From Pedobacter sp. SYP-B3415 (GTDB taxonomy: Bacteria; Bacteroidota; Bacteroidia; Sphingobacteriales; Sphingobacteriaceae), in the NCBI RefSeq assembly GCF_004138205.1, contig NZ_RXNQ01000009.1, positions 1 to 64,000 of the forward strand: a stretch of 64,000 nucleotides of DNA, in the 5' to 3' direction. A program made the position numbers and the translations under genes. Position 1 is the stretch's first letter. The number at the start of each line of letters is the position of its first letter. Shown here one piece after another: positions 17,623 through 40,650 of this stretch. A model generated the notes under the pieces. That model was not told the DNA's origin, ran no database searches, and saw only the letters and a list, made by a program, of their open reading frames with translations.

Positions 17623-19071
17623 ATGACACTTGACGCGCTCCTTGATATCGATGAAAAGGACGTCAATGCCGAAATGTTCCGGCGTGGCGACTTCGATTTC
17701 ATTACCGTGCGCGATGGGGGCGATGCATACGTAAATGAGAAGGGTGAGCTGCGTTACAAGCACCTAAAACAGGAGGCTGCACTTCGTTCCCTTACCGATC
17801 AGAGCAGCAACGAGATTGTATACGGTGGTGCTGCAGGTGGCGCCAAGACATGGACCGGCTGTGCCTGGGTGCTCTTCAGTGCTTACCTGTATCCCGAAAC
17901 CAAATGGTTCATCGGCAGGGACGAGCTGAACAAGATTGAAAGCACGACCCTGCTTACCTTTCACCGGGTGGCCAAGACATACGGATTCATTCGGGGTGTA
18001 GATTATCAGTACCTGCAGAAAGGTCACTGCATCAAGTTTGCCAACGGATCGCAGATCGACCTGCTGCAGCTCAAGTACATGCCGAAGAAGGATCCACTAT
18101 TCGAACGGTTTGGCTCCCTTGAGTACACCGGTGGCTGGATGGAAGAGGGTGGTGAATGTCATTTCGGTGCCTTCGATACGCTCAAGTCTCGTGTAGGTCG
18201 TATGAACAACGACCGGCACCGTCTGGCCCGGAAGCTGTTCGTTACCTGCAATCCTAAAAAGAACTGGTTATACAGGGAATTCTTCAAGCCTGCCGAGAAG
18301 GGCATGCTGCTCGACTACCAGGTGTTCATCCAGTCATTGGTATCCGACAACCCATTTATCGAATCTGGATACGTTGAGGGCCTGCTATCCATCAAGGACG
18401 TAGCCAGGAAGGAAAGGCTGCTGAAAGGAAACTGGGATTACGATGATGATCCCGCGGCTATCATGCCGTACATCAATATCAACGACCTGTTCACCAACCA
18501 GCATGTGCTGCGGACCGGTATCAGGTACATTACTGTCGACGTGGCCAGACAAGGAAAGGATGCAACCAAGATCTATGTATGGGATGGCTTTGTCTGCTTT
18601 GAACGGCATACCCTCACTAAAGCCGGTACCGATGTCGTGGAACAGAAGATCAAGGACCTGGCCAATAAGTACAACGTCCCTATGTCCCGGGTTGTGGTTG
18701 ATGCTGATGGCATTGGTGGCGGCGTTGTGGATCATCTCAAATGCCAGGAGTTCCTTAACCAGTCAACACCGTTCGAAAAGGAGAACTATGCCAACAAACG
18801 GGCGCAGATGTACTTTGCATTGGCGCTCCTGGTCAATGCCGGTGGAATGTACCTGGAAGGTTGCGAGCCAGAACTTAAGGAGCAGATATCCCTGGAGCTA
18901 TCCGTCATCAAAAAGAAGAACCTGGACGGTGATGGTAAGGACGATATCATCGACCGTAAGTCGATCATTGAGCTGATAGGGAGCTCACCAGATAACGCCA
19001 CATGCCTGATGCTACGGATGTTCTTCACTTACTTCAAGCCGATTAAAAAACCAAAATACTCACTCGTATGA
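17623..19071 (+). CDS. terL: Terminase large subunit
   Basis: A 482-residue packaging ATPase/nuclease. The Walker A-like loop is VYGGAAGGAKTWTGCA near residue 70 and the Walker B-like strand is GGWMEEGGE near residue 175. The nuclease half has RYITVDVARQGKDATKIYVW with the first catalytic aspartate, VVVDADGIGGGVVDHL, and DNATCLML near the C-terminus. Length is normal. It overlaps the tail-chaperone gene by 4 bp. Unusually, the portal gene lies 13.5 kb further on, after the tail genes. Confidence 0.92.
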   Translation: MTLDALLDIDEKDVNAEMFRRGDFDFITVRDGGDAYVNEKGELRYKHLKQEAALRSLTDQSSNEIVYGGAAGGAKTWTGCAWVLFSAYLYPETKWFIGRDELNKIESTTLLTFHRVAKTYGFIRGVDYQYLQKGHCIKFANGSQIDLLQLKYMPKKDPLFERFGSLEYTGGWMEEGGECHFGAFDTLKSRVGRMNNDRHRLARKLFVTCNPKKNWLYREFFKPAEKGMLLDYQVFIQSLVSDNPFIESGYVEGLLSIKDVARKERLLKGNWDYDDDPAAIMPYININDLFTNQHVLRTGIRYITVDVARQGKDATKIYVWDGFVCFERHTLTKAGTDVVEQKIKDLANKYNVPMSRVVVDADGIGGGVVDHLKCQEFLNQSTPFEKENYANKRAQMYFALALLVNAGGMYLEGCEPELKEQISLELSVIKKKNLDGDGKDDIIDRKSIIELIGSSPDNATCLMLRMFFTYFKPIKKPKYSLV

Positions 19072-19703
19072 AGATACCTATTACAATAGCCTTCGCAGAC
19101 AAGAAGGACAAAGTCTATTACAAAGACCTCAAGGTGCCAACCGCCTGGGGAGATCTTACCCTCGGCCAGCTCATTGATATCAGCAAGCTGGATCCGAATG
19201 CCAAGAATCGGAAAGCTGAGGTGTATAGCATCATTACCGGTTTAACCCAGAAGGAGATTTTATCGGCGACTGATCTTGACTACTGGCAGCAAGTCGAATC
19301 AATGCTGAGCTTCCTGCAGGTAGAAGCCGACTTCAAAGTTTATCCGGTACCGACATCAGTTGAATTCCGGCTACCAGGTGATGACACCGGAACATTCGAT
19401 CGTTTCGCTGCCAGGGTACCTGCAGATCTAAGACTGGAAACGTTCGGTCAAAAGGTTGCCCTGGAAGAGTTGGTCCGTCATGTAGATCCATCCGATGCCG
19501 GTGATATCAACCTGCTGCCGATCATGCCGGAGGCGTTGGCCATTTACTTCTATCCAATCATCACAGGTGAGCCGTTCGACGATGAAAAGGTGGAGACGGT
19601 CATCGACTTGATGAAAACCTTACCTGCCAAGCATGCGATGCCGATCGCAGGTTTTTTTTTAAGCAATTATACGCTATCATCGACCACGAGCGACGAGAGC
19701 TAA
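19068..19703 (+). CDS. Tail assembly chaperone, short form (gpG-like)
   Basis: A 211-residue protein with AWGDLTLGQLIDISKL near residue 30, a pattern typical of tail assembly chaperones. Close to the end, codons TTT TTA at 19656-19661 are preceded by T, giving a TTTTTTA slippery heptamer in a run of nine T. The -1 frame is open across this point and continues for 85 codons to 19918. Thus a gpG/gpGT-type pair is likely: the short form ends at 19703 and a longer fusion is made by frameshifting. It is separated from the tape measure by 5 kb, unlike in lambda. Confidence 0.7.
   Translation: MKIPITIAFADKKDKVYYKDLKVPTAWGDLTLGQLIDISKLDPNAKNRKAEVYSIITGLTQKEILSATDLDYWQQVESMLSFLQVEADFKVYPVPTSVEFRLPGDDTGTFDRFAARVPADLRLETFGQKVALEELVRHVDPSDAGDINLLPIMPEALAIYFYPIITGEPFDDEKVETVIDLMKTLPAKHAMPIAGFFLSNYTLSSTTSDES
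19655..19661 (+). promoter_or_regulatory. Programmed -1 frameshift site (slippery heptamer)
   Basis: T_TTT_TTA is read in the zero frame as TTT TTA; both tRNAs can re-pair one base back on TTT TTT. The downstream -1 frame begins AAG CAA TTA and runs to a stop at 19916-19918. No strong downstream pseudoknot was worked out. Confidence 0.65.
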
Positions 19704-19918
19704 CCGGCAAGCTTAAGCCGGAGCAGCTGCAGGCAGGCATCCGAAACATGGATAAATACGGGCTGCTCAATTCCGTTGATGTACTGGCGGGTGGCGATAT
19801 CGCAAGATGGAACGATATCATGCGCATGCGATATGAGAAGGTGTTTGTAAAGCTGATGATGAATAAGGACCTGGTTAATTATCAGGAGCGATATGCAGAA
19901 ATCATGCGCAAGAAATAA
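19661..19918 (+). CDS. C-terminal extension of the tail chaperone (gpT-like), reached by frameshift
   Basis: Eighty-five codons in the -1 frame relative to the chaperone gene (starts KQLYAIIDHERRELTGKLK, ends RYAEIMRKK). No stop lies between the slippery site and 19916. The peptide is helical and basic at its end, as expected for the T part that contacts the tape measure. There is no good independent start before an ATG near 19748. The fusion would be about 283 residues. Translation by frameshift is inferred from the heptamer and the open frame. Confidence 0.65.
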   Translation, partial: KQLYAIIDHERRELTGKLKPEQLQAGIRNMDKYGLLNSVDVLAGGDIARWNDIMRMRYEKVFVKLMMNKDLVNYQERYAEIMRKK

Positions 19919-20827: not shown

Positions 20828-23074
20828 ATGGCAGACTATCAATTCATCGACACCTTCTCAATCTTTACCGGTGGCAATGGCACTCAGGTCATTGTTTTCG
20901 TTAACCGGGTGGCCCCTTACGATATTCAGATCGAATCAACTGGCGGCATCATAACTGATCTGGAGCCAGGTAATAATAACCGCGGTTATATTTCAGGATC
21001 TGCTATCTATGACTTCTGTGACGGAACTACCAAGGTTTCCACCGTTGCATCTAACGAATATCCGTACGCCTCAAGCAGCTTTGATCTAAATTCAGAGTCG
21101 TGCGGATACAATGGCGGCGGGGGCTGTACGCTCTATGTGCAGTCTATTGAGGTCAATGGCATGACCGCGCAGATCATTCCTGCCGGCTTCACCGATATCA
21201 ACAATCTGGAGTATTCGTTTGACGGAGTAAACTACTCAGCATCTAATGCGAAGGTGTTTGATGTTCCTGGAACTTATGACGGTTACGTTCAGGAGATATC
21301 AGGAGGTTGTTGGGCAGCTAAAAGCTTCCAGATTGTTGCACCTGGTCAGGAAAAGATCAGGGTTGTATCGGTAACAGCGACTGATCAGACGCAGGAGTTT
21401 GTAAACGATGGATCTGCAACGATCGAGGCGGTATCTTCTTTCGGACCTATACAGTATTCGATCGACGGCCAGACCTGGCAGAACTCAAATGTGTTCGAGA
21501 ATCTTGCTCCAGGTGATTACATGGCCTATGCGAAGGACACAACCAGCTTCCAGGATGGAAAGGCTTTTACTATCCGGGCAAAGTTTCAGATGTTGTTCGA
21601 AACGCCGGCATTTGAGGTGTCAGCTGGCAACGTTTCTAAGTGGATAGCAGCGCACAATCCAATCATCTTCAAGTTTATGCGCCGCGATTACGAGATTGAG
21701 GGCATCCTTCCTTTTCCGAATGCCAATGCTCCGGATAAGAAGCCGCTCCTGGTACTGAAATCAAACCCTGCAGGTGTGGAGAATGGCGGTACGATCATCG
21801 TTCAGAGCGAAAAGTATAAGGGAACGTTTCGTGTTGTTGAGGTGGTAGGCAAGAATGTGGTGCTCGATACGCCATGGCTGGAGCAATCTGCATCAAATGG
21901 CTTCGTGATCACCAAGGCAAAAGTGAACTATCGCATTGAACTTAAGATCCAGACCGGCATCGGTCCGATCAAGGATGTGGTACTGGGTTCATTCTCTCCG
22001 GATCCTGCCGGCATTGTTACCTGCAACATCCAAAGCAAGCTCAAGAACCTGGTAAGCAGCCGCAACGACTTCAATTATGATGCTGTCAACTGGAGAGACC
22101 TTAATGCTGCAGGATCTTTCGAGCTTTTCTACCGGCAGCTGTGGGATGGCGTTGATACAGCGCCATGGACACAGGTACCTGAGGCCTACTATTTCACCAA
22201 CTCAGCAAAGCAGCTGGGTGATCAGCTGGGTAGTAACATGGGTCAATACGTACTGTTTCCCTCATATCCAGCTGGCGCTGCGAAAGCAAGATTTCTGACA
22301 ACCTTTAAGACCGCGCGCTGGTTTGTTGGGTATCCCTTTGACCTTTCTTTCATTTACTCGGACGCTGTCTTAGGTCATGATCTATACCTGTCAGAGACAT
22401 TGCTTGATGTAAACGGCCAGGTGATCCAGTTGCCTGAGTTCACGATCATGATGAACCAGGATGATACGGCATTGATGAACGAAGATAATTCGCTAGTTCT
22501 GATCGAGCAGCAGTATGAAGGCTTTGAACCGATAAGCAAGGCGCTTGGCATTCATCGCCTGATGGTGTCTGACCTGATCTTCAGCGGAATCTTTAAGAGG
22601 GTAAGTATCGGCCGGATGGATAACGGGGTTTACACGGCATTGACCGAGGAAAAGAAGGTGATCATTGACAATGCTTGCAGAGACAAACCGGTGTACCTGG
22701 CTTGGATCAACACACTTGGCGGCTGGGATTACTGGCTGTTTGAAAGAACGCAAAAGGTTACGCTTGCATCAGGCAACATCAAGACGTATGATGTGTATGC
22801 TGAGAACCTGAGCACAACCTTTTCCAGTACTGAGACGATCAGCAAAGAAGCATCTGACAAGGTTACTGTTGGTGCAACGGTCGATCTGGAGACTTTCCTG
22901 AGCTTACGCGCGGTGATCTATTCCCCAAAGGTTTTGATGCTAATCGGGCAGCAGCCGGTTAGGTGGCTGACGGTGCAGGTTGAGCAGACCTCAGCTGCTT
23001 ATGAGACCAAAGACGGTGTAGCAGATCTGGAGTTCTCATTTATCCTTCCATCTATCAATATCCAAAGTAACTGA
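20828..23074 (+). CDS. Large tail protein with SprB-like repeats
   Basis: A 748-residue protein. Residues about 98-180 and 180-255 contain two modules of the form YSFDGVNYSASNAKVFDVPG and YSIDGQTWQNSNVFENLAPG, which resemble the SprB repeats of Bacteroidota gliding adhesins. The rest is beta-rich, with methionine-rich EFTIMMNQDDTALMNEDN near residue 540. It lies two genes after the chaperone and before another large tail gene and the tape measure. A role at the tail tip or as a tail decoration that touches the cell surface is inferred; no enzyme motif was seen. Confidence 0.6.
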   Translation: MADYQFIDTFSIFTGGNGTQVIVFVNRVAPYDIQIESTGGIITDLEPGNNNRGYISGSAIYDFCDGTTKVSTVASNEYPYASSSFDLNSESCGYNGGGGCTLYVQSIEVNGMTAQIIPAGFTDINNLEYSFDGVNYSASNAKVFDVPGTYDGYVQEISGGCWAAKSFQIVAPGQEKIRVVSVTATDQTQEFVNDGSATIEAVSSFGPIQYSIDGQTWQNSNVFENLAPGDYMAYAKDTTSFQDGKAFTIRAKFQMLFETPAFEVSAGNVSKWIAAHNPIIFKFMRRDYEIEGILPFPNANAPDKKPLLVLKSNPAGVENGGTIIVQSEKYKGTFRVVEVVGKNVVLDTPWLEQSASNGFVITKAKVNYRIELKIQTGIGPIKDVVLGSFSPDPAGIVTCNIQSKLKNLVSSRNDFNYDAVNWRDLNAAGSFELFYRQLWDGVDTAPWTQVPEAYYFTNSAKQLGDQLGSNMGQYVLFPSYPAGAAKARFLTTFKTARWFVGYPFDLSFIYSDAVLGHDLYLSETLLDVNGQVIQLPEFTIMMNQDDTALMNEDNSLVLIEQQYEGFEPISKALGIHRLMVSDLIFSGIFKRVSIGRMDNGVYTALTEEKKVIIDNACRDKPVYLAWINTLGGWDYWLFERTQKVTLASGNIKTYDVYAENLSTTFSSTETISKEASDKVTVGATVDLETFLSLRAVIYSPKVLMLIGQQPVRWLTVQVEQTSAAYETKDGVADLEFSFILPSINIQSN

Positions 23075-25037: not shown

Positions 25038-27836
25038 ATGGCAGATTTTAGAAAGACGATCCTTTTGGAATTAGGATTAAGAAAAGAAGATTTTGTAAAG
25101 GAAGCGGCGGAAACGCAGAAGCAAGTGAGTGAGCTTATAGCCAGGCAGAAGGAGCTTAAAGCTGCAGGTCAGGAGGCGACGATCGAATATCAGAACAATG
25201 CGGCCAATCTGAAGCTGCTGAAGTCTGAGTATGCGGAGGCGCAGCGCAATGCTGCGAATTTTGAAAAGGCCGTTCAGGCTGGTGGTGCCGGTGAGTTTGG
25301 ATCGCTTGCCCAGCTGAAGGCTGAACTGTCGGTATTGACGTCTAAGTATGGAGAATTGGCGGATGCAGGTCGGGAGTACTCCGAGGAGGGGCAGGACATT
25401 GCCCGGGAGACAGCCCGGGTTACAGCTGAGCTGAAGAAAGCGGAAGAGAAAGTGTTGAATTTTCGAAGGAACGTTGGGAACTATCCGGAACCTATCAAGC
25501 CTATTCCGAAGGATACCGTGTTCTCTGTCGAAAAATTCAACGAAATTCTTGCGCAGGTTCCCCATACAGTCGTTGACATAACGACAAAAATTAAAAACTT
25601 GGAACAGCTTCGACTGAGTACCCCTATTAATCAGGTCGGGGAATTAAACGATGCAGTCTTGCAACTTAATACGGACATGCAGAAAGCGTTAGGTAAGATT
25701 GATGAGTTTGGAGACAAAGAACCAAAGAACAACATTAAAAAATCATACGACGATCTGAATGATGCAATCCAAGGGACGATCGCTGCGGTATCTGTAGCCA
25801 ATTTTCTTGGAGCCGATGAGGCTGAGATGGAAAAAGCGATAGCAGCTGCGGTAACTTTAAATACCGTGGCCACGAACGCAAAGTCAATCGCAAAGGGAGC
25901 AGTGGTAGCGTGGGAAAAAGCGGAGATGATTGCAACCCAAGCAAATATTGGCGTTCAATTGGCATACGGCCTTGCCGTAGGCAAATCTACAGGGTCTTTG
26001 AAGTTGTTCCGTCTTGCACTTGCAGGTACTGGAATTGGCGCTATTGTAATATTGATAGGGATGCTTATAGCAAATTTTGATTCAGTAAAGAATGCAGTTA
26101 CTGGATTCATAGATCGGAGTACTGTGTTGAAAACTGTGATCAATTATTTGCTTTTACCCATGCGGTTACTATGGCAAGGCCTTAAAATGGTCGGGGAATA
26201 CTTCGGTTTCGTGGATAGCCAGGCCCGAAAGGCAGCAGATGCTATGTATGATGCTGTCGCAAGAACGAATGAAGGCCTCCAGTACAGAATAGATCTGCTA
26301 AACGCGCAAGGTAATAAGGAGAAAGAGGTGCATGAGTTGGTTCTAAAACAGATAGATAATGAGTTGAACGCACGCCGCAAGCAAATCGATGCGGGGAAGG
26401 TCTTGAATGAGGAAGAGCAAAAAAGTTTTAGGGAGCTGAAGGCAAAGCGGATGGTCGAAGAGGCAAAGTTTAATAAATGGTCAAACGAAGAAGCAGCAAA
26501 GGCTAGAGACAAAGCTGATAGCGAAGCCGAAAAGGCGAAGCAAAAAAGGGAAGCCGATGGCAAGAAAGCTTCTGATGCCGCTAAGAAAGTCGCAGAAGAG
26601 CGTAAGCGGCAACTGGAGGAAGAACTTGCATATACGAAAGAGCTTACCGGTCAGCTTGCTGAGTTGGACAAGAAGCGGATGTCGTCTTTCGACAGTGAGA
26701 TTGCTGAGGCTGACCGCAAATACAAAGAGCAAGTCGCCAAGGCCAAAGGCAACAAAGCGCAGCTGAAGTTAATTGACGAAATTTTTGTCCAGGAGATTGC
26801 GGGAATAAATCGCAGGGCCGCTGCGGATGCAAAAGCACAGCAGGATGAACTGGATAAACAGCGTCTTGAGCAGGCACTTGAGACAGTTGCTGATAACGCG
26901 CAGCGCCATTATGAGCTTAAAATGGCGCTAATCGAAAAAGAGCGGGAGATGGAACTGGCTCAGCTTGATCTTACCGAGACGCAACGGCAAGCCCTTCAGG
27001 AAAAATACCGTTTCCAACAACAGCAAGCGGAATCAACGTTTGCCCAAACTATAAGAAGTGAAAGGGAAGCGCATGCCCAGGCATATGTCGATCGTGAAAA
27101 ACAGATGGCCGAAGCTAAGGAGCAGTTTGAACAGCGTAAAATAGATTCAATTTCTAGGGGGCTTAGCATCGTTCAAGGCACCTTTAATCAACAAACTGTT
27201 TTGTATAAGTTGGCATTCGCACTTGAGAAGGGACTGGCTGTTGCATCGATAGCCCTTCAAACTCAGAAGGCTCTTTCGGCCAATCGTGTAGCCGAACAGC
27301 TTCAAAATGCTACGCTTTCAGCAGTGCCTTTTGTTGGCCCCGCGCTTGCCTTAGCCAATTCGATGAAGGCTCGTGGTGAGCGATTCGGGATCATCCTTGA
27401 AGGAGCCTTGGGCGTTGCAAGTATCGCCGCTACTGTTCTCAAAGGCTTCAATCGCGGCGGTATCCATACTGGTGATGGTATGGTCTATGGGCCCGGTACC
27501 GGAACAAGCGATTCCATCAATGCCAGGCTGAGCAATGGTGAGTCAGTGATCAATGCGCGTAGTACGCGAATGTTCGGTCCGATCTTGTCTGCTATGAACG
27601 TTGCCGGTGGTGGCCGTGCATTCAGCGCACCGGTTTCATACTACATGCCGGCCATGGCTGAAGGCGGGGTATATAGCAGTCTGGTCTCGCCGGTGCCGCA
27701 GTATGATCCAAAGGAAATGGGTGAGGCCGTTGCCCAGGCTCTGGTCCAAAACTTCCCGCAGATCTGGGTGAACGTGGCTGACGTCACGGATGCCCAGGCA
27801 AAGCAGGTTAATGTTGATGAAAGGGTAAGCTACTAA
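25038..27836 (+). CDS. Tail tape measure protein
   Basis: A 932-residue protein with the classic layout: coiled-coil N-terminus (EAAETQKQVSELIARQKELK), a hydrophobic segment near residues 320-345 (LALAGTGIGAIVILIGMLIA), a long charged coiled coil at about 440-760, and a C-terminal part with GGIHTGDGMVYGPGTGTSDS and RLSNGESVINARSTRMFG. That end is typical of tape measures. Its length would set a tail of ordinary siphovirus size. Codons 165-750 look richer in A and T than the ends, a hint of mosaic exchange. It overlaps the next small gene by one base. Confidence 0.88.
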   Translation: MADFRKTILLELGLRKEDFVKEAAETQKQVSELIARQKELKAAGQEATIEYQNNAANLKLLKSEYAEAQRNAANFEKAVQAGGAGEFGSLAQLKAELSVLTSKYGELADAGREYSEEGQDIARETARVTAELKKAEEKVLNFRRNVGNYPEPIKPIPKDTVFSVEKFNEILAQVPHTVVDITTKIKNLEQLRLSTPINQVGELNDAVLQLNTDMQKALGKIDEFGDKEPKNNIKKSYDDLNDAIQGTIAAVSVANFLGADEAEMEKAIAAAVTLNTVATNAKSIAKGAVVAWEKAEMIATQANIGVQLAYGLAVGKSTGSLKLFRLALAGTGIGAIVILIGMLIANFDSVKNAVTGFIDRSTVLKTVINYLLLPMRLLWQGLKMVGEYFGFVDSQARKAADAMYDAVARTNEGLQYRIDLLNAQGNKEKEVHELVLKQIDNELNARRKQIDAGKVLNEEEQKSFRELKAKRMVEEAKFNKWSNEEAAKARDKADSEAEKAKQKREADGKKASDAAKKVAEERKRQLEEELAYTKELTGQLAELDKKRMSSFDSEIAEADRKYKEQVAKAKGNKAQLKLIDEIFVQEIAGINRRAAADAKAQQDELDKQRLEQALETVADNAQRHYELKMALIEKEREMELAQLDLTETQRQALQEKYRFQQQQAESTFAQTIRSEREAHAQAYVDREKQMAEAKEQFEQRKIDSISRGLSIVQGTFNQQTVLYKLAFALEKGLAVASIALQTQKALSANRVAEQLQNATLSAVPFVGPALALANSMKARGERFGIILEGALGVASIAATVLKGFNRGGIHTGDGMVYGPGTGTSDSINARLSNGESVINARSTRMFGPILSAMNVAGGGRAFSAPVSYYMPAMAEGGVYSSLVSPVPQYDPKEMGEAVAQALVQNFPQIWVNVADVTDAQAKQVNVDERVSY

Positions 27837-32567: not shown

Positions 32568-33953
32568 GTGAAAGTCGTCCTTGCACAGATCGAGCAGCGC
32601 CTTGTTCAAAAGGAGAACAACAACTTCGGCATTATCAATTATGACATTGATAATGCCTACCCTACACGCATCCGGGAAATGGTCAGTGCTTCCGGCACGG
32701 CCACCCGCTGCGTGGAGCGGTATGCCCGTTTCATTGAGGGGCAAGGATTCATCAATACCACCTTTTTCAAAGCCAGGATCAACAGCGGTCGTAAACTTAC
32801 TACGGATAAGCTGCTGCGCAAATGGGCCAATGATCTGGGCATGTTGCGAGGCTTTGCAGCTCATGTAAATTACAATGGGTTGTACCAGGTAACTGAGGTA
32901 AACATCATTTCATTTGAGGACTGCCGGCTTGCATCTGCAGAGAACAAGGAGCACAAGAACCAGATCGCGGTTTATGATGACTGGGGTAAGCGCAAACGCA
33001 AGCAGATCAAAAAGGAAGATATCCTTTGGTATGACCGGTTTACTTCAGATCCTGCAGAGATTGAAGCGCAGATCCTTGCTGCCGGTGGAATTGAAAACTG
33101 GAAGGGACAGATCTTTTGGTATAGTGCTGATGGCGATGAATACCCATTAGCGTCGTGTGATCCGGTACTGGAAGATGTTGATACAGACGCGCAGATCAAA
33201 GTGTTCCGGAACAACAGTGTTCGATCGGGTTTTCTCGATCATGTGCTCTTTATTGGAAAAGGCAAATCCGAATCGGAGGCCGAGCTGCAGGCTACAAAAG
33301 ATGACTTGAAAAAGTTCCAGGGCGCCAACAACTCGACGCAGATCATGTACGTTGAGGTCGAAGACGACAAAGAGATTCCGGAGCTCAAAGCGTTTCCCAG
33401 TACTGATGCTGACAAGAAGTTTGAAGTCACGGTCCGGACCGCGAAGGATTCGATCATTGAATGCTTCGGTATTCCGCCGGTCCTGCTGAATGGTTTGATA
33501 CCTGGTAAGCTTGGTACGGCAACGGAGATCGCTGACGCGGTGAACTTCTACAATCAGCAGACCAGCCGGGAGCGGATCGTATTTGAAGAGACTGCCACCT
33601 TGCTGTTTGGAAACTTTGCGGCCGACATCAACGTTGCTAAAGACTTCTCGATCCGCGCGATCGACTTCACATCTGCAGATACCATACCGGTTGAGTTTCT
33701 TCCGGACCTTACGAAAAACGAACGCCGTGCCCTGGTAGGTCAGCCGGAGCAGGAAGATACCACATCCAACGAGCAGCTGCTTTCTGAGCGCCTGGGTGTC
33801 GGTGGTACAACTGCACTGGTGCAGATACTGGAGGGAGCGCTGCAGCCTTCGCAGAAGATCAACACCCTTAAATTATTATTTGGTCTGACTGAGGAACAGG
33901 CCGCTTCACTTGTAAACACCCAGACAAATGAACCTGCTAATAACAACAGCTGA
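32568..33953 (+). CDS. Portal protein
   Basis: A 461-residue protein starting at GTG behind a strong Shine-Dalgarno. It has NNFGIINYDIDNAYPTRIRE near residue 16, TRCVERYARFIEGQGF near 45, and an IPPVLLNGLIPGKLGTATEI segment near 310 that matches the clip/crown part of phage portals ('FGIPPxLL'). The C-terminal 70 residues are polar and flexible. The size fits a siphovirus portal. It is followed by the connector gene with a 26-bp overlap. Its separation from terL by the whole tail module is unusual. Confidence 0.8.
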   Translation: MKVVLAQIEQRLVQKENNNFGIINYDIDNAYPTRIREMVSASGTATRCVERYARFIEGQGFINTTFFKARINSGRKLTTDKLLRKWANDLGMLRGFAAHVNYNGLYQVTEVNIISFEDCRLASAENKEHKNQIAVYDDWGKRKRKQIKKEDILWYDRFTSDPAEIEAQILAAGGIENWKGQIFWYSADGDEYPLASCDPVLEDVDTDAQIKVFRNNSVRSGFLDHVLFIGKGKSESEAELQATKDDLKKFQGANNSTQIMYVEVEDDKEIPELKAFPSTDADKKFEVTVRTAKDSIIECFGIPPVLLNGLIPGKLGTATEIADAVNFYNQQTSRERIVFEETATLLFGNFAADINVAKDFSIRAIDFTSADTIPVEFLPDLTKNERRALVGQPEQEDTTSNEQLLSERLGVGGTTALVQILEGALQPSQKINTLKLLFGLTEEQAASLVNTQTNEPANNNS

Positions 33954-38268: not shown

Positions 38269-39084
38269 ATGAAAAAAGCATTAACATATCTGGGCTGGAT
38301 AGTCCTTGCAGTAGCCATCGGCTATAACATTTATCAGTGGTTTGCTATTCAAGCAAACGAGCGGGAGATTGCTGCTTTCAAAGCAAAAGAAAATAAGATC
38401 CATAAGCAGATCGATACTGAGGCAACCCTAATCAAAAAACAGGTCTCCGCCTCAGGACAGATATCAGAATACGATATTGACGGTAAGACCGTGCCTCCAG
38501 GTAAGCCAGTTTTCAAAGGCAAAAAGAACATTATAGATACGTCTGCTATGGCTTTGGAGATTAAGGAGAACCAGGTGAAATCCCTAACTCAATTGAATGC
38601 ACAGCTGACGGCCGATAATTTAAAGCTGAGCGCTACGGTTGATGAAAAGAACCGGCAGATCAAATATTACAAGGATCCTCACCTGGCATTTACAATTTAT
38701 CCGCCGGTAAATCCCGCAGACACCAGTGATCACGGATTAGCTGATGTATCTGGCAAGTTCGGTCTTACCGCTACGCAGTTCTGGCGCAGGTCCGGACTCT
38801 TTGGCTTAGGGAAGAAGCGCGACCGGTTAGGCTTTATTACAGATGACCCCAGGTTCACCATTAGCGATGTTCATTATATTGGCTTTGATCAGCCGGAAAA
38901 CGCGATCAGCCTGAGCGTTCATGCAGGGGCCGGGTATGATATCGATCAGCGCACTTTCAATGCATTTCCAGGGCTGAGGTTAAAAGTTGGCCGCATGACC
39001 TTCGATGCGAACTACAAGTACCATTTTGAAACGAAGCGGTTTACAAAGCAGGTTAGCGGCCAATATAATTTCAAGCTGTTTTAA
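38269..39084 (+). CDS. Membrane-anchored coiled-coil protein with a beta-rich end (spanin-like)
   Basis: A 271-residue protein. A transmembrane helix at residues 5-23 (LTYLGWIVLAVAIGYNIYQW) leads to a coiled coil (ALEIKENQVKSLTQLNAQLT, ADNLKLSATVDEKNRQIKYY). The last 70 residues (AISLSVHAGAGYDIDQRTFN, FPGLRLKVGRMTFDANYKYH) alternate like outer-membrane beta strands. One chain could thus reach from inner to outer membrane. It ends convergently with the integrase, their stops overlapping. Confidence 0.55.
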   Translation: MKKALTYLGWIVLAVAIGYNIYQWFAIQANEREIAAFKAKENKIHKQIDTEATLIKKQVSASGQISEYDIDGKTVPPGKPVFKGKKNIIDTSAMALEIKENQVKSLTQLNAQLTADNLKLSATVDEKNRQIKYYKDPHLAFTIYPPVNPADTSDHGLADVSGKFGLTATQFWRRSGLFGLGKKRDRLGFITDDPRFTISDVHYIGFDQPENAISLSVHAGAGYDIDQRTFNAFPGLRLKVGRMTFDANYKYHFETKRFTKQVSGQYNFKLF

Positions 39085-40295
39085 AATCCGAGCGTCTGCC
39101 CTCTTAGCCTTGTATGCATATAGTTTACAAGGTCACGCTTATATTTATCATAACTTTCTGTATCGGTGTGACCGGTTAGATTTTTGACTTCGGCATCTGA
39201 ATAACCTGCGTTTAGCAGATCCACTACGCGGGTATGCTTCCAGCCATAGGGGGTGAAGTTTTCGCTCAGTTCAAGTGGCTTTCGAATATACTCCCTGAAG
39301 AGCCTGGCAAAATATCCCTCGCTATGCCTTATGCGCGCCGTCTGGCCATCCTTTCCAATTACAAAAGAGGACAATGGATGCTGATCCAAGTTAAGAGTTT
39401 CGAGCAAAGCGGCAAGTTCATCGCAGATGGGAATCGTTCTACTTTTCGTTTTTCCAACAATTTTGATGTACCTGCCCTTGATATCCACGTTTTCAATAAC
39501 AAGCTCGCGGATCTCGTCAGGACGCATGCACGAATAGTAAATGAATTTGCAATAGAACTCCAGCTGCGGGATCTTGATCATCTCCTTCTTTACCCGGTCG
39601 GCGACTGTTGCTCCGAAGTACTGATGCTTCATTGGCTTGGCGGTTTTGAATTCAAGCTCTTCGTCCTTGCTGATCACAAAATCATCTTTCTTCACCCATT
39701 GACGGGGCTTCCTGGAGAACCAGTTGGCAAGGGTTCCACAAAACCGTAAATGGTTGTTGTAGGTTGTCGGGTTCCACTTGTGATGGTCACTTAACCAGGT
39801 TAGCATATCTTTCAGGAAGCCGGCGGTCAAATCTCTCACATGGATGTCTGCACGCCTGGTTGTAAAGAGATAGTTCTCAAATTTTGAAATGTAGCTACAA
39901 TACGTCGTGATGGTATCACTATCCAGATTGAGCAGGCGCTTAGCTTTTAAAAAGATTTCGAATGCTTCTATAAGCTGCGGATCGTCGGCTTTGTTTTTCT
40001 CAGCCTCGACGATGGCTATCTTCTCATCGTCAATTAGCGTCTCTGTCCTCTTATCTACTGCGAACGGGGTATAACCCATCCGGAGCATGACGTTCGTATC
40101 TGTTACGAGATCTTTGGCGTACTCTTCCTTCTCTTTATGATCTTTGATGTAGTTCAGCTCTTCGTAGACCTTGAACCGTTCGAATTTTAGTGTGATTGGA
40201 TTTCGATAACTGTACCACACGTGCCATTTTTCAGTCGGGGAACCGGTACGGCCACGATAGATTTTAGCTCTTCTATAAGACTTTCTTAGAGACAT
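39081..40295 (-). CDS. int: Tyrosine-recombinase integrase
   Basis: A 404-residue integrase from the ATG at 40295; the open frame reaches 40484 but that would cross the tRNA gene. The core has CMRPDEIREL (Arg I), GKTKSRTIPI (Lys), TPYGWKHTRVV in place of HxLRHT (box II; Lys instead of Arg, as in many Bacteroidota integrases), LTGHTDTESYDKYKRD with the second His and the Tyr nucleophile. It lies 89 bp from the att core and is oriented away from it. The enzyme would join attP to the tRNA-Ser 3' end. Confidence 0.92.
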   Translation of the reverse strand: MSLRKSYRRAKIYRGRTGSPTEKWHVWYSYRNPITLKFERFKVYEELNYIKDHKEKEEYAKDLVTDTNVMLRMGYTPFAVDKRTETLIDDEKIAIVEAEKNKADDPQLIEAFEIFLKAKRLLNLDSDTITTYCSYISKFENYLFTTRRADIHVRDLTAGFLKDMLTWLSDHHKWNPTTYNNHLRFCGTLANWFSRKPRQWVKKDDFVISKDEELEFKTAKPMKHQYFGATVADRVKKEMIKIPQLEFYCKFIYYSCMRPDEIRELVIENVDIKGRYIKIVGKTKSRTIPICDELAALLETLNLDQHPLSSFVIGKDGQTARIRHSEGYFARLFREYIRKPLELSENFTPYGWKHTRVVDLLNAGYSDAEVKNLTGHTDTESYDKYKRDLVNYMHTRLRGQTLGF

Positions 40296-40383
40296 TTTTT
40301 TTGACAGGTTTTTTGTCCCTTCTGTGTCCCCGCTAGTGGCTAAAGACGCAAAAAGGCCGTTGTGACGGCCTATTTTACGTTCT

Positions 40384-40401
40384 GCGGAGAGTGAGGGATT
40401 C
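40384..40401. repeat. attR core inside the tRNA-Ser 3' end
   Basis: Identical over 18 bp to 227-244. It forms the 3' part of the tRNA gene (T-arm and acceptor), so integration kept the tRNA intact. Confidence 0.9.
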
Positions 40402-40469
40402 GAACCCCCGGACCTGTAACAGTCAACAGTTTTCAAGACTGCCGCAATCGACCACTCTGCCAACTCTCC
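40385..40469 (-). tRNA. tRNA-Ser(UGA)
   Basis: An 85-nt cloverleaf on the minus strand. The acceptor GGAGAGT pairs with ACTCTCC, the anticodon loop reads CTTGAAA (anticodon TGA), a long class II variable arm follows, and the T-arm is GGGGG-TTCGAAT-CCCTC. No CCA is encoded. The 3' end is the prophage integration site; its old terminator is now at 186-211. Confidence 0.95.
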
Positions 40470-40650
40470 GCCGCAAAAGTACAAATAAGAGGTAAATCTG
40501 CAAACCGAGTCCCTTATTTTTTAGCGCTTTTTAGGTAATTGCTTCAAACAGAGGGTGAAAAAATGCATTTCATGCTTATAATTTACTAGGATGAAGCCTT
40601 GGTGTCCGGTAGGCATCTGCTTCGCACGGAGATAATTTTCTGGCAAGCGA

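What the first reader, a model, noticed from the sequence alone, without database searches (positions are those of the whole stretch)
19650..19918. Programmed -1 frameshift in the tail chaperone gene
A run of nine T contains T_TTT_TTA in the zero frame. The -1 frame is open through the site and for 85 more codons, while the zero frame ends 14 codons later. This is the G/GT arrangement of siphovirus tails, here placed directly after terL and 5 kb from the tape measure.
Basis: partly seen in the sequence, partly recalled or inferred. Interest (0 to 1): 0.5.

Follow-up and report, generated by a model that had tools for sequence, protein, structure and literature searches.

The report
Programmed frameshift in phage tail chaperone
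A prophage gene uses a run of T's to make two versions of a probable tail-assembly helper protein from one message; relatives in other phages and bacterial genomes keep the same slip site, so it looks like a real, shared device of a kind already known from phage lambda.

Summary
In detail: zero frame GGT TTT TTT TTA (19650-19661), -1 frame open for 85 codons to 19918, gene directly after terL. The T9 run alone is not unusual here; the evidence is comparative. In 83 of 84 distinct loci with both parts (this one included) the downstream part is in the -1 frame and the junction reads NNT TTT TTT in phase. On their tree the first codon changes amino acid at least 10 times, its T never; 269 other columns have a median of 28 third-base changes. 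The extension evolves as protein (dN/dS 0.17). A remote family around Nonlabens phage P12024S has the site in 44 of 44 distinct loci. No conserved stem-loop or Shine-Dalgarno stimulator was found. In many relatives, not here, the zero-frame tail is also constrained. Four distant relatives carry the downstream part inside a single ORF. Most likely: -1 ribosomal frameshifting in a G/GT-type tail chaperone; the chaperone role is inferred, and transcriptional slippage is the main rival.

The parts
19068..19703 (+). zero-frame ORF, short product (211 aa), putative tail assembly chaperone 'G' form
   Evidence: relatives; confident predicted fold
19652..19658 (+). conserved slip heptamer T_TTT_TTT (NNT TTT TTT in the zero frame)
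   Evidence: 83 of 84 distinct near loci with both parts and 44 of 44 remote ones; zero third-base changes on the tree
   Evidence: among the loci seen only here and in L090
19658..19918 (+). -1 frame extension ('T' part): F at 19658-19660, then 85 codons to the stop at 19916-19918; full trans-frame product 283 aa by calculation
   Evidence: dN/dS 0.17 in the family
19662..19703 (+). zero-frame tail after the site: 13 codons and stop
   Evidence: its length is no longer than chance here (14 codons after the slip heptamer against 12.7)
19748..19918 (+). first start codon inside the extension (56 aa); start positions are not conserved in relatives
17623..19071 (+). terminase large subunit
   Evidence: Pfam Terminase_3 9.6e-8, phrog_2 4.8e-22
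25038..27836 (+). tape measure protein
   Evidence: phrog_1538 8.3e-9 and other tape measure families
20828..23074 (+). large virion protein between chaperone and tape measure
   Evidence: phrog_26672 virion structural protein 1.8e-7
32568..33953 (+). portal protein
   Evidence: phrog_11226 1.2e-75
39081..40484 (-). tyrosine integrase ORF, overlapping the tRNA-Ser at 40384-40469 (the ORF start as listed is probably too early)
   Evidence: Pfam Phage_integrase 1.2e-13; tRNA

Best explanation
The gene at 19068-19918 makes two proteins by programmed -1 ribosomal frameshifting. Most ribosomes read the zero frame and make a 211-aa protein. A fraction slip back one base while tRNA-Phe sits on both codons of U_UUU_UUU (19652-19658) and continue in the -1 frame, making a 283-aa fusion. 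By analogy with lambda G/GT, the short form would coat the tape measure protein and the long form would bring in the major tail protein. Shown here: both frames, the conserved site, and protein-level selection on the extension. Inferred: the ribosomal mechanism, the rate, and the chaperone function.
For: Extension in the -1 frame and NNT TTT TTT at the junction in 66 of 71 loci examined (63 after dropping 3 repeats; the other 5 lack one part by profile search) and in 23 of 24 further loci (20 after dropping 3 repeats). Phylogeny-aware control on these 83: 0 third-base changes in the three slip codons, while the first changed amino acid at least 10 times; 269 other columns have a median of 28. 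Median dN/dS 0.19 before and 0.17 after the site. The T run is 7 in 52 of 83, short for polymerase slippage. Remote family: 44 of 44 distinct loci, homologous in both parts by profile comparison (hhalign probability 97.0 and 94.5). Position after terL in a tail module with a tape measure gene. The HK97 tail assembly chaperone is among the weak fold matches (Z 2.5).
Against: No conserved downstream structure (mean z -0.42 at the site, -0.57 to +0.36 at the other offsets) and hardly any Shine-Dalgarno-like stimulator (1 of 63). U_UUU_UUU is less shift-prone than A_AAA_AAG in E. coli (passage in PMC5009743). In this window the run is T9, long enough for transcriptional slippage (same passage). 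No Pfam or PHROG family matches the window's N part, and matches to relatives are weak and scattered. The extension of P12024S alone gave no match to the near family's extension; only a 12-sequence profile did. Four distant relatives carry the downstream part in a single ORF. The gene is not next to the tape measure gene.
Confidence: 0.83

Rival explanations
1. Transcriptional slippage: RNA polymerase adds a U in the T9 run, so that some mRNAs carry the extension in frame.
For: T9 here; a run of 9 As or Ts slips efficiently in vivo (passage in PMC5009743). All 44 distinct loci of the remote family have 9 or 10 T.
Against: 52 of 83 distinct near loci have only 7 T. The common unit is exactly the tandem-slip heptamer in phase, with the T kept at the third base of a codon that changes amino acid.
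Confidence: 0.12
2. The extension is a separate gene with its own start (for example ATG 19748), and the overlap is incidental.
For: An ATG at 19748 gives 56 aa. In Nonlabens phage P12024S the 3' part of the extension is annotated as a separate gene, gp39, with its own ATG.
Against: Conserved residues begin directly after the slip site. Start codons are scattered: in 63 loci the most frequent positions are codon 21 (30 loci) and codon 56 (38 loci, 37 of them ATG), the latter deep inside. It would not explain the fixed T_TTT_TTT.
Confidence: 0.03
3. Sequencing error or frameshift mutation in a homopolymer; the true gene is one ORF.
For: Homopolymers are error-prone; four distant relatives are single ORFs.
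Against: The same -1 relation at 7, 8, 9 and 10 T in 83 distinct loci from many separate genomes and contigs.
Confidence: 0.01

Closest known systems
lambda G/GT tail assembly chaperone frameshift and its counterparts in other long-tailed phages (Levin 1993, Xu 2004 and 2013: seen only as citations; passages of the review PMC5009743 read)
   Same: short product plus -1 fusion; heptamer at the overlap; tail module with a tape measure gene
   Different: no recognisable sequence similarity by Pfam or PHROGs; homopolymeric T_TTT_TTT; placed directly after terL and 5 kb from the tape measure gene; in many relatives the zero-frame tail is long and itself constrained
Nonlabens (Persicivirga) phage P12024S gp38/gp39
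   Same: gene after terL, CTT TTT TTT TAT, -1 extension of 80 codons; homologous N part and extension at family level
   Different: annotated as two hypothetical proteins without a shift; 15% identity in the fold alignment (entry taken to be gp38 from its 175 aa)
single-ORF relatives: Bacteroides phage BS-TP3 gp55, ORFs in G190 and G330 (these three match phrog_28240) and in G515
   Same: at or near terL; C part homologous to the extension (hhalign 87 for BS-TP3 and 97.7 for G330; E 5.8e-19 for G515 and 6.7e-5 for G190)
   Different: one ORF of 171 to 198 aa, no T7 run; N-part kinship weak for BS-TP3, not found for G330, not computed for G515 and G190
HK97 tail assembly chaperone (PDB 2ob9)
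   Same: weak structural match of residues 1-90, Z 2.5, 75 residues aligned
   Different: Z far too low to claim the same fold; not among the sequence matches

Membership tests
G/GT-type tail assembly chaperone expressed by -1 frameshifting | two overlapping frames, the second in -1, both conserved as protein | tested here: met
G/GT-type tail assembly chaperone expressed by -1 frameshifting | conserved in-phase X_XXY_YYZ heptamer at the overlap | tested here: met
   T_TTT_TTT
G/GT-type tail assembly chaperone expressed by -1 frameshifting | lies in the tail module upstream of the tape measure gene | tested here: met
   but not adjacent: four genes, 5.1 kb, lie between, and in G238 (L107) the likely tape measure gene precedes it
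G/GT-type tail assembly chaperone expressed by -1 frameshifting | homology or shared fold with known tail chaperones | tested here: inconclusive
   no family hit for the window's N part; 2ob9 at Z 2.5; entries named as tail chaperone or frameshift protein G in BFVD only at E 0.11 and 0.31
G/GT-type tail assembly chaperone expressed by -1 frameshifting | both products made, the long one at a low ratio, both needed for tails, absent from virions | not testable with these tools
   needs mass spectrometry and mutants
programmed transcriptional slippage gene | homopolymer of about 9 or more conserved in the family | tested here: not met
   7 T in 52 of 83 distinct near loci; 9 or 10 T in all 44 of the remote family

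The most novel reading that the evidence does not exclude
Bacteroidota phages have their own tail-chaperone superfamily that is recoded by a bare U_UUU_UUU heptamer, without a Shine-Dalgarno or structural stimulator, in hosts whose ribosomes ignore Shine-Dalgarno sequences. In most of the members read here the shift does not merely extend the protein: it chooses between two conserved C-termini encoded in the same DNA in two frames, with a zero-frame tail of 35 to 84 codons.
Probability: 0.4. Interest if true: 0.6.

Novelty: new member of a known kind. Interest (0 to 1): 0.45.

Why it matters
It extends the G/GT frameshift to 127 distinct loci of Bacteroidota phages and prophages (83 near, 44 remote); in the one annotated phage among them, P12024S, the two parts are entered as two hypothetical proteins. 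Bacteroidia ribosomes are reported not to recognise Shine-Dalgarno sequences (abstract of PMC9976891), and such pairing is one of the known bacterial frameshift stimulators (passage in PMC4066793), so this is a natural test of what sets frameshift rates without it. The overlapping tails in relatives add a question: what does the zero-frame C-terminus do?

Tried and rejected
RNA structure: no signal at the site. Rfam at gathering thresholds: only the tRNA. PDB folds: nothing at E 0.001. The model of the extension alone was poor (pLDDT 62.9) and was not searched. Flavobacterium phage 6H gp10 (taken from its 191 aa to be a weak fold match, E 0.02) has T_TTT_TTC near its end, but read by eye the -1 frame there meets a stop at once; left out. 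A search of 296 genomes of the phylum with the remote family's N part found nothing, without a positive control. A search of the phages collection with the window's own N part found nothing.

Left out of counts: weak hits in G017, G070, G388 and G280 (E 0.002 to 0.01) were not read; loci that hold a place already read (L002, L016, L017 and the repeats among L049 to L077) were not counted again. Of the genomes with a match, those not already fetched were not read at the junction. In one search, 4 of 64 loci had no zero-frame stop in the DNA held and 16 repeated another locus.

My site finder for the near family asked for TTTTTTT in phase, so the number that matters is how often it failed on loci with both parts: 0 of 66 and 1 of 24 (L204, seven T present but out of phase because its N part is out of frame upstream).

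Correction made on checking: I had meant to write that only Pelobium has a strong fold after the site; one search printed nine loci, and L044 (-27.0 kcal/mol) is stronger than Pelobium (-24.2).

Full report
What is there. The window is part of a 4.47-Mb genome. A prophage-like stretch with terL, tail genes, tape measure, Clp-type protease and portal runs to an integrase ORF that overlaps a tRNA-Ser. The host is Bacteroidota, probably Sphingobacteriaceae: a genome of the same family (G370) gives the same junction as the named record of Pelobium manganitolerans; this placing is inference. Directly after terL lies ORF 19068-19703. At 19652-19660 it has nine T; the -1 frame is open from there to 19918.

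Is it chance? The T run alone says little: 3 runs of nine T on both strands, 2.80 expected. The case rests on relatives.

Near relatives. Searches with the N part and with the extension found Pelobium (48% identity), a divergent copy in the same genus (23%) and many copies in another genus of the family, g69 (62 of 300 genomes of the order matched with either query). I read 71 loci, of which 66 have both parts by profile search; in all 66 the extension is in the -1 frame and the zero frame reads NNT TTT TTT at the junction. Three of the 66 are repeats, leaving 63. The other 5 are one single-ORF relative (L096), three copies cut off before the site (L098 to L100) and a second copy in G405 (L101) without a recognisable extension that reads CAC TTT TTT. 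A further viral-contig search gave 24 loci, 23 with the site (20 after dropping 3 repeats) and one, L204, that has both parts and seven T but an N part out of frame upstream. So 83 of 84 distinct loci with both parts, the window's own included, have the site in phase; the 83 fall into 53 single-linkage clusters at 80% protein identity and 10 at 60%. The codon before the two Phe codons is CAT 61, TAT 12, GGT 3, TTT 3, TGT 2, AGT 1, ACT 1; the T run is 7 in 52, 8 in 6, 9 in 22 and 10 in 3.

Controls. TTT makes up 448 of 615 Phe codons elsewhere in 63 of these genes, so two TTT are not remarkable in one locus. Across the family they are: in a first alignment of 63 loci, of 274 well-filled columns only the three at the slip site have T at the third base in every sequence. 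On a tree of all 83, the three slip codons have 0 third-base changes although the first of them changed amino acid at least 10 times; 269 other columns have a median of 28 and a minimum of 1. Median dN/dS (pairs with dS 0.1 to 1.5) is 0.19 for the N part and 0.17 for the extension. Start codons in the extension are scattered; within its first 53 codons the most frequent position has one in 30 of 63 loci.

Remote relatives. The predicted fold of the N part (pLDDT 85.6) matches a 175-aa protein of Nonlabens phage P12024S (E 5.9e-5), which I take to be gp38 (175 aa; hhalign probability 93.1). gp38 also follows terL and reads CTT TTT TTT TAT, with an 80-codon -1 extension that covers the annotated gp39. 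A search with gp38 gave 63 viral loci; with the phage itself 64 were examined, 4 had no zero-frame stop in the DNA held, 16 were repeats, and all 44 distinct ones carry T_TTT_TTT with an extension of 79 to 91 codons; they form 11 clusters at 80% identity. Profile comparison joins the two families in both parts, although the extension of P12024S alone gave no match. More distant relatives, Bacteroides phage BS-TP3 gp55 and ORFs in G330, G515 and G190, hold the downstream part inside one ORF at or near terL. BS-TP3 also resembles the near family at the start of the N part, weakly (probability 50); the G330 N part gave no match; G190 looks alike by eye only, and G515 was not compared.

How it works. 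The common unit is T_TTT_TTT in phase, so both tRNA-Phe can re-pair fully after slipping one base back. No conserved structure was found downstream; of nine loci folded one by one there, Pelobium has a compact hairpin from 6 nt after the site (-24.2 kcal/mol) and L044 reaches -27.0. Shine-Dalgarno-like 4-mers precede the site in 1 of 63, as expected for hosts reported to ignore them (abstract of PMC9976891; start of the abstract of PMC6847099 in a listing). The review PMC5009743 (passages) gives lambda's product ratio as 30:1, says the G-T shift is widely conserved in long-tailed phages, that a run of 9 A or T makes RNA polymerase slip well, and that U_UUU_UUU is less shift-prone in E. coli than A_AAA_AAG. 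A passage of PMC4066793 notes that UUUUUUU is underrepresented in all three frames of E. coli genes. I favour the ribosome because 52 of 83 near loci have only seven T; the remote family, with 9 or 10 T throughout, does not help to decide.

A twist outside the window. After the site the zero frame stays open for a median of 38 codons in the near family and 79 in the remote one, where 12.6 and 22.7 are expected if only the extension's amino acids are kept. The per-locus test is weak for the near family (p < 0.05 in 16 of 83, median p 0.11) and stronger for the remote one (33 of 44, median p 0.024). In the overlap, third-base changes of the -1 frame, which are second bases of the zero frame, are 14.8 per column against 21.6 after the zero-frame stop in 69 near loci. 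In 39 remote ones they are 2.8 against 6.3 in the N part; only 3 columns lie beyond the overlap there, with 3.7. So in many members both C-termini seem selected. In this window the zero-frame tail is 14 codons against 12.7 expected, so nothing can be claimed here.

What it is called. Architecture, site and module fit the lambda G/GT kind. Homology to known tail chaperones is not shown: no Pfam or PHROG match to the window's N part, weak and scattered matches of its relatives, HK97 chaperone only at Z 2.5. In PHROGs the remote N part is phrog_32199 (12 of 12 members) and its extension phrog_38404 (3 of 12), both of unknown function.

In print. In the full text held, 'programmed frameshift', 'tail assembly chaperone' and 'Bacteroidetes' meet in one paper, PMC3711429; the three passages shown speak of a chaperone cluster similar to HK97 and name Bacteroidetes only in a table of genomes. 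'Ribosomal frameshifting', 'Bacteroidetes', 'Shine-Dalgarno' and 'phage' meet in that paper and in one on IS elements (listing). 'Frameshift', 'tail assembly chaperone' and 'Flavobacterium phage' meet in none. Subscription journals are mostly not held, so this is no proof of absence.

Noticed in passing
genus g69; L205-L224; 89 of 120 genomes of another genus of the family match the N part, 87 of them once. In ten genomes compared, all share an S24-peptidase-like (repressor-type) gene and a second small gene 2 to 13 kb upstream of the chaperone, and four share a longer, probably chromosomal flank; in two (G397, G213) most of the module is missing. A vertically kept prophage, or a gene transfer agent, is possible; whether these copies have an integrase was not tested.
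   Followed up: partly
L098, L099, L100 (G267, G275, G284): In three diverged g69 genomes the chaperone N part ends at the same point, about 6 nt before the T run would start, and runs into a gene that in G307 lies about 19 kb downstream (BLAST E 4e-10 for L100, 0.21 for L098, by eye for L099); slip site and extension are gone. One old deletion or a repeated event at one site.
   Followed up: partly
L101 (second copy in G405): A second chaperone-like copy without a recognisable extension reads CAC TTT TTT: where the extension is missing, the slip T is missing too.
   Followed up: partly
L116:23663-23830 (Nonlabens phage P12024S gp39): Annotated as a separate hypothetical protein; it is the 3' part of the -1 extension of gp38.
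   Followed up: yes
L011:13299-13835 (Bacteroides phage BS-TP3 gp55): Annotated as a TrkA-N domain protein; by position and profile match it is a single-ORF relative of this chaperone.
   Followed up: partly
L107 (G238), L103 (G264), L104 (G408): The place of the likely tape measure gene relative to the chaperone differs between these g69 copies, so the module has been rearranged.
   Followed up: no
L004:3550-3597 (Pelobium): A compact hairpin begins 6 nt after the slip site (75-nt fold -24.2 kcal/mol); it could be a local stimulator. L044 has an even lower energy; no family-wide signal.
   Followed up: no
L114:1474-2067 (G515): The single-ORF relative has an in-phase T_TTT_TTA at about codon 88 of 198; what a shift there would give was not worked out.
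   Followed up: no
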